64,000 nucleotides of DNA from Anaerolineaceae bacterium. GTDB lineage: Bacteria > Chloroflexota > Anaerolineae > Aggregatilineales > Phototrophicaceae. Position 1 is the stretch's first letter, and every line of letters begins with the position of its first letter. The DNA lies in NCBI GenBank assembly GCA_026708325.1, contig JAPOVC010000021.1:62001-126000 (forward strand). The letters run 5' to 3'. The position numbers and the translations under genes were made by a program. Below, piece after piece: positions 14,221 to 47,485 of this stretch. Below the pieces are notes generated by a model. That model searched no databases, had not been told where the DNA came from, and saw only the letters and a program-made list of their open reading frames with translations.

Positions 14221-15185
14221 GCCTGTTCCGTCCCCCGCAGTCTTGGGTCAAGCGCGTCGCGCAGTCCGTCGCCGAGCAGGTTGATGCACATCACGGTGAT
14301 GAATATCGCCAGGCCGGGGAAGACGGTCATCCACCATTCGCCCGAGCGGATGTAATTGCGGCCCAGGCTGAGCATCGCGCCCCATTCCGGGTGCGGGATT
14401 TGCGCGCCCAGCCCGAGAAAGCTCAAACCGGCGGCGATCTGAATCGCGCTGGCGACGCGCAGGGTTCCCACCACGATCACGGAGGAGACCACATTCGGCA
14501 GAATGTGTTGCCACATGATGTGCCAGTGCGAGGCGCCCATCGCGCGCGAACTTTCGACGTAGATCTTGTTCTTCTCCACCAGGGTATCGCCGCGCACCAG
14601 GCGCGCGAAGGCCGGCATGCTGGCGATGCTCACCGCCAGCATCGCGTTCTGCAGCCCCGCTCCCAGGATCGTCACCACGACGATGGCCATCAGAATCGCC
14701 GGCAGCGTCAGCATGATGTCGAGAAAACGGCTGATGACGTCATCCACGCCGCCGCCGAAATAGCCGGCCATCAGGCCCAGCACCAGACCGATGCTGATCG
14801 CCGCGCTGATGGAGACCACCCCGACGCTGATGGTCGTGCGCCCGCCATGCAAGACGCGCGAAAACACGTCGCGCCGCAGGTCGTCCGTGCCCATCCAGTG
14901 CTGCGCGTTGGGGGACACGAGCAAATCGGCGCTGTCCTTGCTCTGTTCCAGGGGGTCAAAGGGGGAAATGGAATCCGCCAGCATTGTCAGCGCGATGATG
15001 ATCAGCAAAATGGCGCCGCCCAGCAGGGCCGCCTTGTCCTGACGCAACTGACGGCGGATGAAATACCACTGGTTCTGCGACTGCCCGGCGCCCGCGTTGT
15101 TTTCCGGCAGGGTCTTGATGGCCGCCGGCCCGGCAGCCGGCTGTCCTGCGGAGGGCGGTCCCGCGGCCGGGCTGCGCTCAGGCAT
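14217..15185 (-). CDS. Peptide/nickel-type ABC transporter permease (DppC-like)
   Basis: 322 residues, inner-membrane permease with six predicted helices and the binding-protein-dependent transport motif around ESSRAMGASHWHIMWQHILPN (the EAA loop that docks the ATPase). It has a DppC-type N-terminal extension with a Pro/Gly/Ala-rich cytoplasmic tail of about 45 residues. It overlaps the DppB-like gene upstream by eight bases and the LLM gene downstream by four, so the genes are tightly coupled. No DppD/DppF ATPase genes occur in this window; they must be supplied from elsewhere. Confidence 0.9.
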   Translation of the reverse strand: MPERSPAAGPPSAGQPAAGPAAIKTLPENNAGAGQSQNQWYFIRRQLRQDKAALLGGAILLIIIALTMLADSISPFDPLEQSKDSADLLVSPNAQHWMGTDDLRRDVFSRVLHGGRTTISVGVVSISAAISIGLVLGLMAGYFGGGVDDVISRFLDIMLTLPAILMAIVVVTILGAGLQNAMLAVSIASMPAFARLVRGDTLVEKNKIYVESSRAMGASHWHIMWQHILPNVVSSVIVVGTLRVASAIQIAAGLSFLGLGAQIPHPEWGAMLSLGRNYIRSGEWWMTVFPGLAIFITVMCINLLGDGLRDALDPRLRGTEQA

Positions 15186-40772: not shown

Positions 40773-40864
40773 CCCCGAAGGTCCTGCGCGCGATCGTTTG
40801 ACCCCGACGCGTGGCCGCGCTATGCTCTACTCAACATCGCAGCCTGACTCCGGAGCAACCCGCC

Positions 40865-41377
40865 ATGGCAGCCGAAACAACCGTTCTCGAATCCCTCGAC
40901 GTTCGACTGGCAAGAATTGAAGGGGCCCTGCCCTACCTCGCCACGAAGGAGGACATCAGCGACCTTCGCGGCGAATTGCTCCGTGAATTGCAGAGTGAAA
41001 GCGGCGCGCTGCGCAATGATTTCCAGGGCCAGATCGGCGCGTTGCGCAGTGATATACAAGGAGAGATCGGCACGTTGCGCAGCGATATGCAGAGCGATAT
41101 TGGGTCACTGCGCAGCGAGTTGGTCGGCAAGATCGACGCGCAGGGCAGTGGCCTGCAGGGCGAGGTCAGTGCGCAGGGCAACAAGTTGAGTGGCAATGTC
41201 GACGCGCTGGCCCGCAAGATGGATGATGAAACTGGTTCGCTGCGCCGGGAAATTGGCGAAATTCGGGGCGAGATTGGCGAAATTCGAGGTGAAATCAAGT
41301 CATTGCGCTGGTCAATGACCTTGTCCATGTCTCTTCTGGGCGTTGTCCTGGGCGTCCTGATGTTCGTGTTGCGCTAG
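40865..41377 (+). CDS. Coiled-coil protein with C-terminal membrane anchor
   Basis: 170 residues. The N-terminal segment ESLDVRLARIEGALPYLATKEDI is common in DUF1640/coiled-coil-like small proteins. It is followed by repeated 11-residue heptad-like units (GALRNDFQGQI, GALRSDIQGEI, GTLRSDMQSDI, GSLRSELVGKI) and a C-terminal helix MTLSMSLLGVVLGVLMFVLR. GGAG nine bases before the ATG. Function unknown; a structural spacer. It lies about 190 bp before the helicase gene, with no clear promoter signal between them. Confidence 0.65.
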   Translation: MAAETTVLESLDVRLARIEGALPYLATKEDISDLRGELLRELQSESGALRNDFQGQIGALRSDIQGEIGTLRSDMQSDIGSLRSELVGKIDAQGSGLQGEVSAQGNKLSGNVDALARKMDDETGSLRREIGEIRGEIGEIRGEIKSLRWSMTLSMSLLGVVLGVLMFVLR

Positions 41378-41567
41378 CCGGTCGGCGACCGCCCGCGGCG
41401 GGTGATTTCCAAGCTGATCAAGACATTGTGCATGTGATGCCTTGCCCAAGCGGTCAAGTCATTGCATGGAGTGCTGGCTAATGCACCCAACGAAACCTCA
41501 ATGAATATAGACTTGCCAAGTGATGCTCCTGTAGAGTCTGTCAAGACTGTTTGTTGAGGGGACGGCT

Positions 41568-44500
41568 GTGCAACCCGATGCGCTTTTGCCTGACGTACGA
41601 GTCCGCAATCTGATTCCCGGTCAGGTTGTCACCATTACCCATGTCGATAGTACCAACGAAGAATACCTGACTGTCGGTTTCCGCAACGACTGCGGTCAAA
41701 CATCTGAGAAGATAGTTTTCCTCCCCGACGGCCTGTCTTCAATCGAGATAGTCCATGAGCGAATGTTGCATTTTGACGTCGACGGTGAACTCTTTCGCCT
41801 GATTGCTGAGGCTTGGCGTCTGCGGAATGCGCATCTCTTTGACCCCTATTCCGCACTGCACAGCGCGCGCATCCGACCCTTGCCGCATCAGGTCGCCGCA
41901 GTATATGGCGAGATGCTGCCCCGTTTGCCACTTCGATTCTTGTTGGCGGATGATCCCGGTGCCGGCAAGACGATTATGACCGGCCTTTACATTCGCGAAC
42001 TCATGGCTCGCTCGGCCCTGAGCCGCTGTCTGGTTTGTGTTCCTCCCGGGTTGGCGCTCCAGTGGCAACAGGAATTGCATGAAAAATTCGATCTGAAATT
42101 CGCGTTTCCAGAGCGACTGGACGCCGTCCAAAACCCCTTTTTCAACAACCGCCTTATCATCGTAAGCATGGATACGCTCAAGCAGGAAAGACACGTCAAA
42201 CGGCTCCAGGGAACGGAGGTCACGTGGGACCTGATTGTCTGTGACGAGGCGCACAAAATGGCCGCGCACTTTTCTGGAGATGAAATCACACGTACAGATC
42301 GTTACCGCCTCGGAGAGAGCCTTGGAAGCCTGACGAGAAACCTTTTGCTGCTGACAGCCACACCCCATAACGGCAAACAGGAGGAGTATGAACTCTTCCT
42401 GAACCTGCTGGATCCTGACCGCTTCCGCAGCCGGCCTGTGAGCTTGGTCGGCGTTGGGAAGAACAATGCGCACGGAGCCAAAGGCCGTACCGACTACATG
42501 CGACGGATGGTCAAGGAAGATCTGCGTGACTTCAGCGGGAAACCTCTCTTTCCGGAACGCCACGCCAAAACGCTTGGATATGAATTGCCAGTCGCTGAGG
42601 AAGAACTTTACCGGGATGTTACGAATTACGTTCGTGAGGAGTATAACCGCGCCGAACGTTTGGAAAGCGGCAAGCGTCACAGTGTTGGCTTCGCCCTGAC
42701 CATCCTTCAGCGCCGACTCGCCTCTTCGCCGCTGGCCATTTTTCGCTCCCTGTCGCGGAGGCGCGAGCGTCTGGAGGCTTTGCTAAGACAGCCCGTTGGG
42801 AGCTATTCGTTGAACCTGCGCGAAGAAGATTTCGATGCCGAGGAACTTGAGAGCGAAAGTGACGCGCATCGCAGCGTTGGCGCCACCGCCGCAATCAACA
42901 GGGAAGAACTGACACAGGAGATCGCCTCACTCCATAAACTGGAGCAAGAAGCCGACCGGCTTTGCCGCCATGGTGTAGACCGCAAATGGGACGAGTTGAA
43001 AGTTCTCCTGCAGGACCCGCGCATGCGACAGGAGGGAAGGCGAGGCCGTCACAAGCTTGTCATCTTTTCGGAGTATCGTGACACGCAAGAATATCTTGCG
43101 AAACGACTGCGTGATTTGCAGGGCCTCAAAAGGGAAGTTGTTGAAATCCACGGCGGTGTTGGCCAACTTGAACGCCAAAGAATTCAGAAGCAATTCAATC
43201 GCGAATCAGGGCCATCCATTTTAGTCGCCACCGATGCAGCAGCCGAAGGCATCAACCTGCAGTCCGCCCACCTCATGATAAATTACGATTTGCCCTGGAA
43301 CCCCAACAGGCTGGAGCAACGCTTTGGTCGCATCCATCGCATCAACCAACAGGAGGTTTGCCATCTGTGGAATCTCGTGGCGACAAACACCCGTGAAGGC
43401 GCTGTCTTTCAACTCCTGGAAGAGAAGATTCGTGTCATTGGCAAGTCTCTGACACTGTTCGACGTGCTGGGGGAAGACCTGCCGGGTGTCCCCTTGCGCA
43501 AGCTGATGGTAGACGCCCTGCGCTACAACGAGTCCCCGGAGGTGCGCGCGCGTCTTCAGAAAAGCGCTGACAACTACGTCGAAGAATACAGACGCGAACG
43601 CGAATTGCTGCAAGGTGCTCTCGCGCATGATGTTATGGATCTGAGTGAGATTAACGAGGTCAACGACAAGGTGTCTCGTCAGGAGCCTTCTCGCCTGCAC
43701 CCTTGGTTCGTGCGGGGCTATCTCCTCCAAGCGCTGAGACATCACAAGGTAAGAGTGAAAGGATTGGGCAAGGGACGTTTCGAAATAATACGAGTTCCAT
43801 ACAAGCTTCGCCGGCTCGCGCCACAATACCAGGAGTTGGCAGAGCGATATCGACGGGTGTGTTTCGAACCTTCCCGCATAGAGATTGCAAATGAGCCGGA
43901 TGCTGAACTCTTGCACGCCGCCCACCCGCTGGCCCATGCTGTTACCAATCTCATGCTTGAGGACAGCAGCTCATTGCGCCGAGGCGCCCTGCTGGTTGAT
44001 GAAACCGGCAGCTTCGACAAGCCCGCCGCCATTTTTACAGTGAAAATCTCCATCTTCAACGGCAATGGGGAAGAAGTTGAGGGCGAAGCCTGTTTCATCT
44101 CAATCGGCCAAGACGGAGAAGCGAACCAGGTCGGAGTACCACCTTGGCTGGAGTTTCGTCCGGCAAGTGATGTTGAACGGGCGCGCGTGGACAGAATGCT
44201 TCACGAAGACTGGTTGATGCAGGAGGATACAGCAGGAACGGCACAGCGTTTCGCCACGAGTTATCTCGCCCGCGACCTATTGGCTAGATCCAGCGACAGG
44301 CAGAAAAGATTGATTGGCAAAGAACGCGAGGAAGTCAGTTCCACGCTCAAACAAGCAATCCAGCATGAAGAGAAAAATGTAAGTACAGAGCGACAGAACG
44401 AAGAGAACGAGCGAGACGAAGATCGACGCAACCTCGCTCGAGGACGCCGCCTTCAGGCAGAAAGACGCCGTGACGAAGAACAACAGAAACTCAGCGATCG

Positions 44501-44996
44501 ATTGAGGGACCTAGAGATGCGGGAACATCTGTCAGTGCAGCCTCCCGTCGTTCACAGCGCCGTGTTGGTCTTGCCGAAGCACATGGTGAGCGACTCAGAC
44601 ACTGCGCCACGCCTGCGGGACTGTCGGCGTCTGGCGATAGGAAGCGTTCTACAAGCTGAGCGGGCTCTGGGCAACAAACCAACTGACATTGTTGAGCGTC
44701 GACATCCATTTGACATTGAGAACCGTGACGCAGCGGGCAACCTTCGCTTCATCAAGGTCAGAAGTTATCCCGAGGGAGCAAGCCACATCATGCTCACACA
44801 GAATGAGTTGGTCGCAGCACTCAATTCTCCGGAACGTTTCATACTGGCCTTGGTAAAAGTCAGGGACGGCCACGCCACCGATCCACGCTATCTTCGTGGC
44901 ACCGAATTCCCCAAACAAATCATGGATCAAGTAAATGTTTCCGTCGAACTGAGTTCCCTGTTGCCAAAATGCATCGGCCCGGAAGAAATCTCCTGA
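41568..44996 (+). CDS. SNF2/SWI-type superfamily 2 helicase with coiled coil and DUF3883-like C-terminus
   Basis: 1142 residues from a GTG start. Motif I is LLADDPGAGKTIM (Lys134), DEAH box in LIVCDEAHKM, motif III LLTATPHNGK, motif VI QRFGRIHRINQ. A charged coiled coil (about 920-985) leads to a C-terminal domain with RRHPFDIENRDAAGNLRFIKV and MLTQNELVAALNSPERFILALVKV, like DUF3883. The usual ExK of that domain reads KVR here, so nuclease activity is doubtful. Similar proteins include DrmD of DISARM, but no drmA, drmB or methylase gene is near. Codon composition is AT-richer than its neighbours (29 of 60 G+C at 43081-43140), indicating transfer. Confidence 0.85.
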   Translation: MQPDALLPDVRVRNLIPGQVVTITHVDSTNEEYLTVGFRNDCGQTSEKIVFLPDGLSSIEIVHERMLHFDVDGELFRLIAEAWRLRNAHLFDPYSALHSARIRPLPHQVAAVYGEMLPRLPLRFLLADDPGAGKTIMTGLYIRELMARSALSRCLVCVPPGLALQWQQELHEKFDLKFAFPERLDAVQNPFFNNRLIIVSMDTLKQERHVKRLQGTEVTWDLIVCDEAHKMAAHFSGDEITRTDRYRLGESLGSLTRNLLLLTATPHNGKQEEYELFLNLLDPDRFRSRPVSLVGVGKNNAHGAKGRTDYMRRMVKEDLRDFSGKPLFPERHAKTLGYELPVAEEELYRDVTNYVREEYNRAERLESGKRHSVGFALTILQRRLASSPLAIFRSLSRRRERLEALLRQPVGSYSLNLREEDFDAEELESESDAHRSVGATAAINREELTQEIASLHKLEQEADRLCRHGVDRKWDELKVLLQDPRMRQEGRRGRHKLVIFSEYRDTQEYLAKRLRDLQGLKREVVEIHGGVGQLERQRIQKQFNRESGPSILVATDAAAEGINLQSAHLMINYDLPWNPNRLEQRFGRIHRINQQEVCHLWNLVATNTREGAVFQLLEEKIRVIGKSLTLFDVLGEDLPGVPLRKLMVDALRYNESPEVRARLQKSADNYVEEYRRERELLQGALAHDVMDLSEINEVNDKVSRQEPSRLHPWFVRGYLLQALRHHKVRVKGLGKGRFEIIRVPYKLRRLAPQYQELAERYRRVCFEPSRIEIANEPDAELLHAAHPLAHAVTNLMLEDSSSLRRGALLVDETGSFDKPAAIFTVKISIFNGNGEEVEGEACFISIGQDGEANQVGVPPWLEFRPASDVERARVDRMLHEDWLMQEDTAGTAQRFATSYLARDLLARSSDRQKRLIGKEREEVSSTLKQAIQHEEKNVSTERQNEENERDEDRRNLARGRRLQAERRRDEEQQKLSDRLRDLEMREHLSVQPPVVHSAVLVLPKHMVSDSDTAPRLRDCRRLAIGSVLQAERALGNKPTDIVERRHPFDIENRDAAGNLRFIKVRSYPEGASHIMLTQNELVAALNSPERFILALVKVRDGHATDPRYLRGTEFPKQIMDQVNVSVELSSLLPKCIGPEEIS

Positions 44997-45058
44997 CTTC
45001 GCTATAAGTCCAGAACCAACACTCGGAGCTCAAGAAAGGGACGGGGGAGGCAACAACA

Positions 45059-46590: not shown

Positions 46591-47358
46591 TTACCAAAGC
46601 GTGTAGCCGCCGTCCACCACCAGGTCGTGCCCGGTGACGTAGGCCGAGGCCGCAGACGCCAGGTAGAGGACAGCGCCCTGCAGGTCTTCGGGCGTGCCCA
46701 CCCGCCCCATCGGCGTATTGGAGACCCACTCGTCGCCCATCACCGGGATGGCTTCCACCGTCATCGGCGAAACGGTGTGGCCGGGGCTGATGCAGTTGAC
46801 GCGCACGCCGCGCGCCGCCCACTCCGCCGCGCAGGAACGCGAATACTGGATGACGCCGGCCTTGGCCGCGTTGTAGTGCGAATGCAGTTGCGGCCGGTTG
46901 ACGATCTGCCCGGACATGGAGGCGATGTTGATGATCGAGCCGCTGCCGCGCGCCAGCATGGCGCGTCCCTCGGCGCGCGTGCTGAGGTAGATACCCTTGA
47001 GGTCGATGCCCACCACGTGGTCCCAGTCGTCTTCTTCCAGGTCCTCGGCGCGGGCGCGGGTGGCGACTCCCGCGCTGTTGACGGCCACGTCCAGCTGCCC
47101 CCAGGCGTCCAGCACCTGGTCGACCATGCGTTGCACCTGGTCGGCCTGCGTCACGTCCACCTCGATGGCCAGCGTCGCCACGCCCTGCGCCGCCAGCTGT
47201 CGCGCCACGTCCTGCGCCATGTCCAGGTGGCGGTCCGCCAGCGCGACCTTGGCGCCGGCCTCGGCCAGCGCGGCGGCCAGGCAGGCGCCGATGCCGCTGG
47301 CGCCGCCGGTCACCAGGGCGCTCTGACCGACCAGGGAGAAACGCTCGCCAACACCCAT
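46591..47358 (-). CDS. Short-chain dehydrogenase/reductase (SDR)
   Basis: 255 residues of the classical SDR type. Cofactor motif TGGASGIGACLA, NSAG in AVNSAGVATRA, catalytic Ser in NIASMSGQIV, and the Tyr-Lys pair in HSHYNAAKAGV; ends VTGHDLVVDGGYTLW. Oxidises or reduces a sugar or polyol with NAD(P). GGGAGGG precedes ATG 47358; longer frames run into the tRNA. Convergent with the GH51 gene, and may act on the released sugar. Confidence 0.9.
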   Translation of the reverse strand: MGVGERFSLVGQSALVTGGASGIGACLAAALAEAGAKVALADRHLDMAQDVARQLAAQGVATLAIEVDVTQADQVQRMVDQVLDAWGQLDVAVNSAGVATRARAEDLEEDDWDHVVGIDLKGIYLSTRAEGRAMLARGSGSIINIASMSGQIVNRPQLHSHYNAAKAGVIQYSRSCAAEWAARGVRVNCISPGHTVSPMTVEAIPVMGDEWVSNTPMGRVGTPEDLQGAVLYLASAASAYVTGHDLVVDGGYTLW

Positions 47359-47412
47359 GATCACCCTCCCGCTCGTGTAAGACAAAGGCCCGACGCGCCC
47401 GTCAGGCCTCTG

Positions 47413-47485
47413 TGCCAGGGCCCGGACTCGAACCGGGGACACCCTCATTTTCAGTGAGGTACTCTACCAGCTGAGCTACCCTGGC
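47413..47485 (-). tRNA. tRNA-Phe (GAA anticodon)
   Basis: 73 nt on the minus strand. Acceptor GCCAGGG pairs with CCCTGGC, discriminator A; D-arm AGCTCAGCTGGTAGAG; anticodon stem CCTCA/TGAGG with loop CTGAAAA (anticodon GAA); T-loop GGTTCGAGTCC. No CCA is encoded immediately after the acceptor. All arms pair. Confidence 0.97.

What the first reader, a model, noticed from the sequence alone, without database searches (positions are those of the whole stretch)
41568..44996. Low-GC solitary SNF2 helicase with a degenerate DUF3883-like end
Seen: complete helicase motifs, a charged coiled coil, and a C-terminal domain where the usual ExK reads KVR. Base composition is near 48% G+C in a sampled line against about 65-70% around it, and it separates the sugar importer and sulfatase from the GH51 gene. 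Known: DUF3883 helicases occur in anti-phage systems such as DISARM (DrmD). No DISARM partner is present, so this is either a single-gene system or a remnant.
Basis: partly seen in the sequence, partly recalled or inferred. Interest (0 to 1): 0.6.

Follow-up and report, generated by a model that had tools for sequence, protein, structure and literature searches.

The report
Solo HmaA helicase, nuclease switched off
A bacterium has picked up one lone gene for a DNA-pumping defence motor whose usual cutting domain has lost its key residues, and related bacteria carry similar lone motors, some with the cutter missing altogether, which suggests a defence motor that may work without cutting.

Summary
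The ORF at 41568-44996 is real, intact and low in G+C (54.9% against 65.9% for the rest of the window). It is not DrmD. It is HmaA, the SNF2 helicase-nuclease of Hma (Type-1 BREX-related) systems: full-length PADLOC match, 999 bits against 382 for DrmD. It is truly alone. No DUF499 ATPase or DUF1156 methylase was found in the genome, and both congeners have an empty site, so only this gene was inserted. The genome holds a second solo HmaA (38% identical) at another locus, conserved in a congener. Eleven solo copies occur in 10 of 154 genomes of the order. Seven of them sit at one insertion site, where another genome carries a type II restriction-modification system and others carry nothing.

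The C-terminal domain still models as a PD-(D/E)XK nuclease, but ExK reads KVR. It is the only such case among 115 aligned copies (113 are D/E/K). Five other solo copies end exactly before this domain; the one such pair with unsaturated dS shows purifying selection.

Best reading: a single-gene, horizontally moved defence motor of the HmaA family that has lost DNA cutting. Defence and the cut-free mechanism are inferred, not shown. A remnant remains possible for the window copy itself.

The parts
41369..45037 (+). largest extent of the inserted DNA; absent from both congeners
   Evidence: G001: sulfatase and GH51 only 173 bp apart; G002: coiled-coil ORF kept, then 446 bp to the GH51 match. G+C 54.8%
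41568..44996 (+). solo HmaA gene, 1142 aa
41556..41562 (+). ribosome-binding-like GAGGGGA, 5 nt before the GTG
   Evidence: read
41598..41720 (+). N-terminal small beta domain (residues 11-51; published as a TUDOR domain in Type-1 BR helicases)
   Evidence: strands in model; name from PMC12839542 section 29
41838..42437 (+). SNF2 helicase N-terminal lobe with motifs I-III (residues about 91-290)
43038..43367 (+). helicase C-terminal lobe, motifs V-VI (residues about 491-600)
43488..44525 (+). region after the helicase (residues about 641-986), including the long coiled-coil helices 887-986; less conserved in most solo copies
44631..44864 (+). NOV_C / DUF3883, PD-(D/E)XK-fold domain (residues 1022-1099)
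44754..44762 (+). KVR codons in place of ExK (residues 1063-1065); S1066 and Y1067 replace G and R
40811..41377 (+). small coiled-coil ORF next to the insert; native neighbour, not a partner
   Evidence: present beside the empty site in G002, missing in G001

Best explanation
The gene is an orphan HmaA (the helicase of Hma / Type-1 BREX-related systems) that entered this Chloroflexota genome as a single-gene insert. SHOWN by sequence: family, solitude, insertion, intact motor motifs, loss of the E and K of the PD-(D/E)XK site with the fold predicted to be kept, and recurrence of solo HmaA genes (with an intact, a mutated or an absent nuclease) at several loci of the same order. INFERRED: it acts as a stand-alone anti-phage or anti-plasmid motor. 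A RapA-like dsDNA translocase, guided by its TUDOR-like N-terminus and C-terminal region, loads on invading DNA and blocks or strips replication or transcription complexes rather than cutting, with the dead nuclease domain kept at most as a DNA-binding surface.
For: HmaA full-length match. No DUF499 or DUF1156 in the genome. Empty sites in both congeners. A second solo HmaA in the same genome, also in a congener at the same locus, dN/dS 0.12 with dS saturated and 0.16 over its nuclease part at dS 0.79. Eleven solo copies in 10 of 154 genomes of the order. At the genus-g18 site, 8 of 12 fetched genomes without solo HmaA there are empty and one carries an EcoRI-type methylase plus a GmrSD/HNH nuclease, i.e. 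the site takes defence genes. KVR: 1 of 115, others D/E/K in 113. In the window's nuclease domain 22 of 27 other conserved positions are kept, but 0 of 4 at the catalytic cluster. PD-(D/E)XK fold with K1063/R1065 on the active-site strand. Five solo relatives end at one point just before the nuclease; the pair L124/L129 has dN/dS 0.17 at dS 0.93. RapA is the closest solved structure of the whole chain.
Against: No experiment. The window copy has no relative closer than about 43% among the best 80 of 498 detected loci, so selection on it cannot be measured. As I recall its abstract (paper not held), the one experimental study reports that nuclease activity of HmaA is essential for defence, which would make a dead nuclease non-protective in that context. 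Departures are not confined to the catalytic site: the N-terminus keeps 6 of 14 conserved positions and the coiled-coil region 8 of 22. I saw no other defence gene among the neighbours scanned at the window and C24 sites. One-origin grouping of the solo copies is 95/96 in one tree but only 49 (SH-aLRT) when the longest branches are left out.
Confidence: 0.45

Rival explanations
1. Remnant: an HmaA that arrived alone or lost its partners, whose nuclease died because nothing selects for it; the frame is open only because decay is recent.
For: Dead catalytic site, longest branch among the solo rows (1.5-1.7 changes per column), weak N-terminal and coiled-coil conservation, no close relatives.
Against: 1142 codons open; 144 of 165 helicase columns that are at least 95% conserved are kept over that long branch, which neutral drift would not give; the insert carries no partner gene; solo relatives are constrained.
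Confidence: 0.25
2. Helper of the genome's second solo HmaA (C24, nuclease intact): the two form a mixed complex in which the window copy supplies motor or recognition and the C24 copy cuts.
For: Both are in one genome; the C24 copy keeps D/E/K.
Against: The congener G001 has only the C24 copy, and nuclease-less copies in G049, G055 and G064 have no second HmaA at E up to 1e-120.
Confidence: 0.1
3. Housekeeping RapA-like remodeller recruited from a defence helicase, unrelated to phage defence.
For: Whole-chain similarity to RapA; housekeeping neighbours at the insertion sites.
Against: Patchy presence with empty sites, low G+C, and exchange with a restriction-modification system at one site are the habits of defence genes, not of core genes.
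Confidence: 0.12
4. The C-terminal domain still cuts, with KVR used in an altered site or with a migrated acidic residue.
For: D1049 is kept and the fold is predicted at pLDDT 90.6.
Against: The metal-binding E and the K are replaced by K and R, and the next G and R are replaced too; 113 of 115 relatives keep D/E/K.
Confidence: 0.06
5. Orphan DISARM DrmD.
For: Secondary matches to DrmD models (381.5 bits).
Against: HmaA scores 999 bits over the full length; NCBIfam DrmD is below cut-off.
Confidence: 0.02

Closest known systems
HmaA of the Hma system (PADLOC) = helicase-nuclease of Type-1 BREX-related (BR) systems, PMC8565338 and PMC12839542
   Same: Full-length family match, same domain order (TUDOR-like, SNF2 helicase, middle alpha+beta, coiled coil, C-terminal PD-(D/E)XK)
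   Different: No HmaB methylase or HmaC DUF499 ATPase; active-site E and K replaced; single-gene insert
Solo HmaA copies of the same order (C24 copy, G001, G125, genus g18)
   Same: Single gene between housekeeping genes; grouped together in the tree
   Different: The full-length ones keep D/E/K; five lack the nuclease domain altogether
DISARM DrmD, BREX BrxHII, DpdE
   Same: Related SNF2 motor
   Different: Score far lower (at most 382 bits); none of their partners seen beside it
RapA
   Same: Closest solved structure over the whole chain apart from the nuclease end
   Different: RapA is an RNA-polymerase remodeller without the C-terminal nuclease domain (recalled)

Membership tests
HmaA (Hma / Type-1 BR helicase) | full-length family profile | tested here: met
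   PDLC00659 998.7 bits, 7-1138 on 8-1172 of 1176
HmaA (Hma / Type-1 BR helicase) | C-terminal active PD-(D/E)XK nuclease | tested here: not met
   fold predicted, but E and K replaced by K and R. The BR paper reports the fusion in 79% of taxa, so this is typical but not universal
Hma system | HmaB (DUF1156 methylase) and HmaC (DUF499 ATPase) beside it | tested here: not met
   neither in the window flanks nor in the genome, 96.5% complete
DISARM DrmD | NCBIfam equivalog score of at least 610 | tested here: not met
   359.3 bits
anti-phage defence gene | protection against phage | not testable with these tools
   needs challenge experiment
anti-phage defence gene | mobile, patchy, at sites shared with known defence genes | tested here: inconclusive
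   mobile and patchy: met for the window copy; shared site shown for the g18 relatives, not for the window site

The most novel reading that the evidence does not exclude
HmaA has given rise in one Chloroflexota order to a lineage of single-gene mobile defence motors, and within it DNA cutting was given up at least twice (clean domain loss in genus g18; active-site replacement in the window copy), so that the SNF2 motor alone is the effector.
Probability: 0.35. Interest if true: 0.75.

Novelty: new variant of a known kind. Interest (0 to 1): 0.55.

Why it matters
HmaA is thought of as the nuclease effector of a three-gene, restriction-like system with a methylase to protect self. A copy that moves alone, with no methylase, cannot safely be a general DNA cutter; loss of cutting would solve the self-attack problem and would point to a translocation-only way of stopping phages. 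The natural series here (nuclease intact, mutated, absent, with and without partners) makes that directly testable.

Tried and rejected
DISARM/DrmD membership: rejected on profile scores. The adjacent coiled-coil ORF as a partner: rejected, as it stays beside the empty site in G002 and is missing in G001. The variable convergent ORF downstream of the g18 copies as a partner: rejected, as it is present at empty sites, and it has no Pfam match. A split-off nuclease downstream of the truncated g18 copies: no convincing remnant by tblastn. Flanking direct repeats as an insertion mark at the window locus: none found, unlike the C24 copy. L109 first counted as solo (it is labelled so in the trees): dropped, it has a sacsin/HATPase gene next door. 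L070 (Selenomonadaceae) is solo but nests among partnered copies, so it is an independent case; L088 is frame-broken. L201 and L203 have no HmaB/HmaC hit in the fetched flanks but are not in the solo group. Phage records: no match. Plasmid records: 6 with a match at E up to 1e-100. Viral contigs: 15 loci; 10 of 15 show both an HmaB-like and an HmaC-like gene. Fold comparison says only that the listed folds match; unlisted families are not excluded. Papers: searches listed none that, by title or abstract start, describes solo or nuclease-dead HmaA; in PMC12839542 the words 'solo' and 'orphan' do not occur.

Full report
Observation. The ORF at 41568-44996 is open for 1142 codons from a GTG with a good ribosome-binding stretch. 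It is 54.9% G+C against 65.9% for the rest of the window; third positions are 59.8% G+C against 88-90% in the sulfatase, GH51 and solute-binding genes around it.

What it is. Against PADLOC the whole protein matches HmaA with 998.7 bits (residues 7-1138 on 8-1172 of 1176); the best DrmD model has 381.5 bits. NCBIfam's DrmD model gives 359 bits, below its cut-off of 610. Pfam finds SNF2, Helicase_C and NOV_C/DUF3883 at 1022-1099 (that NOV_C is the former DUF3883 is recalled). HmaA was named with HmaB and HmaC in PMC8565338 (passages read), and re-described as the helicase of Type-1 BREX-related systems with a TUDOR-like start, SNF2 core, an inactive REase, an alpha+beta domain and usually an active C-terminal PD-(D/E)XK nuclease in PMC12839542 (sections 28-31 and passages read). 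A Thermus brockianus plasmid carries a complete annotated example: helicase, Fic protein, DUF1156, DUF499.

Alone. The genome (3.31 Mb, 96.5% complete) has no DUF499 match and no DUF1156 match at E up to 1e-5. Both congeners have an empty site. In G001 the sulfatase and GH51 matches lie 173 bp apart, where the window has 4.3 kb. In G002 the small coiled-coil ORF is kept and 446 bp follow where the window has 3.7 kb. So the insert, at most 41369-45037, carries only this gene.

A second copy. Contig C24 holds another HmaA, 38% identical, 47-49% G+C in its body against about 60-66% around, between a sugar ABC transporter and a Rex-like regulator gene, with no partner beside it. It is flanked by a 58-base direct repeat (91%) that is the 3' end of the upstream permease gene. 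The congener G001 has it at the same place, with DNA alignable over the whole 20 kb at 85%. Between the two, dN/dS is 0.12 overall with dS saturated; over the nuclease part dS is 0.79 and dN/dS 0.16.

How common. Among 151 genomes (the window's and 150 relatives) 45 have HmaA at E up to 1e-120, 37 have DUF499 at E up to 1e-20 and 43 have DUF1156 at E up to 1e-5. Over the 154 genomes held for the order, 48 have HmaA. I count 11 solo copies in 10 of the 154: two here, G001, G125, and seven in genus g18. For 9 of the 11 both sides are in view; for G064 and G085 only the downstream side. Copies of the other genomes whose contigs end close to the gene were not judged, so 11 is a lower bound. Five of the seven g18 genomes (G049, G055, G064, G070, G076) have no DUF499 match anywhere. 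Outside the order, of 396 genomes drawn from the class, 97 have HmaA at E up to 1e-150 and 124 have DUF499 at E up to 1e-10.

A shared site. The seven g18 copies sit at one site downstream of molybdenum-cofactor-type genes where the upstream side is in view; in six of them the same convergent ORF follows, while L123 differs downstream and has an extra ATPase gene upstream. Of 12 further g18 genomes fetched from the 34 searched, eight have only about 70-140 bp there, two carry an unknown 532-aa ORF, one (G078) carries an EcoRI-type methylase (473 bits) and a GmrSD/HNH nuclease (PADLOC type II REase, 416 bits), and one could not be judged because only one side was in view. The g18 HmaA genes there are of two very different kinds, so the site has probably been filled more than once. 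This is the best evidence that solo HmaA travels as a defence gene; it concerns the relatives, not the window's own site.

The nuclease. Of 126 aligned HmaA rows, 10 have no letters at the motif (five g18 copies that end before it and five contig-end fragments) and one is an antisense artefact. Of the remaining 115, 113 read D/E/K, one (L054) D/E/I, and the window D/K/R. Seven more from the class sample with the motif in view, of eight fetched, all read D/E/K. Identical or contained sequences had been dropped (132 to 112); near-copies remain. In the window's domain 22 of 31 positions that are at least 95% conserved elsewhere are kept; at E, K, G and R of the catalytic cluster 0 of 4, at the other positions 22 of 27 (Fisher p 0.004, a grouping chosen after seeing the data). 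The AlphaFold model of residues 985-1142 has pLDDT 90.6, and K1063 and R1065 lie on one predicted strand, at the place of the ExK strand of the fold. The fold matches Holliday-junction resolvase Hjc (VIA-align Z 12.2, rmsd 2.8 over 113 residues; Foldseek E 1.4e-4 to another Hjc). So the domain is folded, but its known chemistry should be lost.

Nuclease-less relatives. Five g18 solo copies (L123, L124, L125, L128, L129) all end at the same place, just after the last strand of the alpha+beta domain (strands). Pairs of solo copies show dN/dS of 0.17 (L124/L129, dS 0.93, nuclease-less) and 0.22 (L126/L127, dS 0.83, nuclease intact); a third, L123/L124, gives 0.11 with dS saturated. The motor without a cutter is therefore kept by selection there, on one informative pair.

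Tree. With a mixture model and 47 rows the 11 solo copies lie on one side of a branch (95/96; 96% of 200 bootstrap trees), and the window joins the C24 pair (96/80) on a very long branch. With the window and L126-L128 left out the solo grouping has only 49 (SH-aLRT); with the window back it is 96. One origin of the solo group is thus suggested, not shown. In most solo copies the region between motor and nuclease has lost more conserved positions than in partnered copies (window 29 of 48 and 8 of 22), as expected if contacts to partners were no longer needed; but those columns were defined on the partnered copies, so general divergence is not excluded.

Mechanism. Shown: family, solitude, insertion, intact motor motifs, replaced catalytic residues, predicted fold. 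Inferred: defence role; motor-only action, by analogy with RapA, the closest solved structure over the whole chain. A study of HmaA in Halomonas (PMC11232893, not held; known to me from recall and from its citation in PMC12839542) reports that HmaA protects and, as I recall the abstract, that its nuclease is essential; if so, the window protein cannot work by that route, which is either the interest of the case or an argument for decay.

Verdict. Not DISARM; an orphan, nuclease-inactive HmaA within a small group of mobile solo HmaA genes: a new variant of a known kind.

Noticed in passing
L003:10778-10835 and 14485-14542 (own genome C24); L034:10706-10745 and 14412-14451: The second solo HmaA is bracketed by a 58-base direct repeat of the 3' end of the upstream sugar-permease gene; also present (40 bases, 98%) in the congener.
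   Followed up: partly
L177:1369-4515 (G078): A type II restriction-modification system (EcoRI-type methylase, GmrSD_N/HNH nuclease) occupies the same site as solo HmaA in other g18 genomes.
   Followed up: yes
L174:484-2079, L175 (G067, G155): A 532-aa ORF without Pfam or PADLOC match fills the same site in two genomes; possibly an undescribed defence gene.
   Followed up: partly
L124:2510-3499 and relatives: Convergent 308-329-aa ORF beside the g18 site, no Pfam match, diverging faster than its neighbours.
   Followed up: partly
L054:9923-13513: Partnered HmaA with EVI in place of EVK, the only other catalytic-motif departure seen.
   Followed up: no
L180:4505-7196 (G153:C187): HmaA beside HmaB-like pieces is broken into several frames, an example of real decay.
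   Followed up: no
L109:6348-10520: A 1390-aa sacsin/HATPase protein directly follows an HmaA in a Caldilineaceae contig, with no HmaB or HmaC in the stretch held.
   Followed up: no
window 47412-47485: tRNA-Phe overlaps the start of the longest SDR ORF 46591-47448 on the same strand; the true SDR start is probably further in.
   Followed up: no
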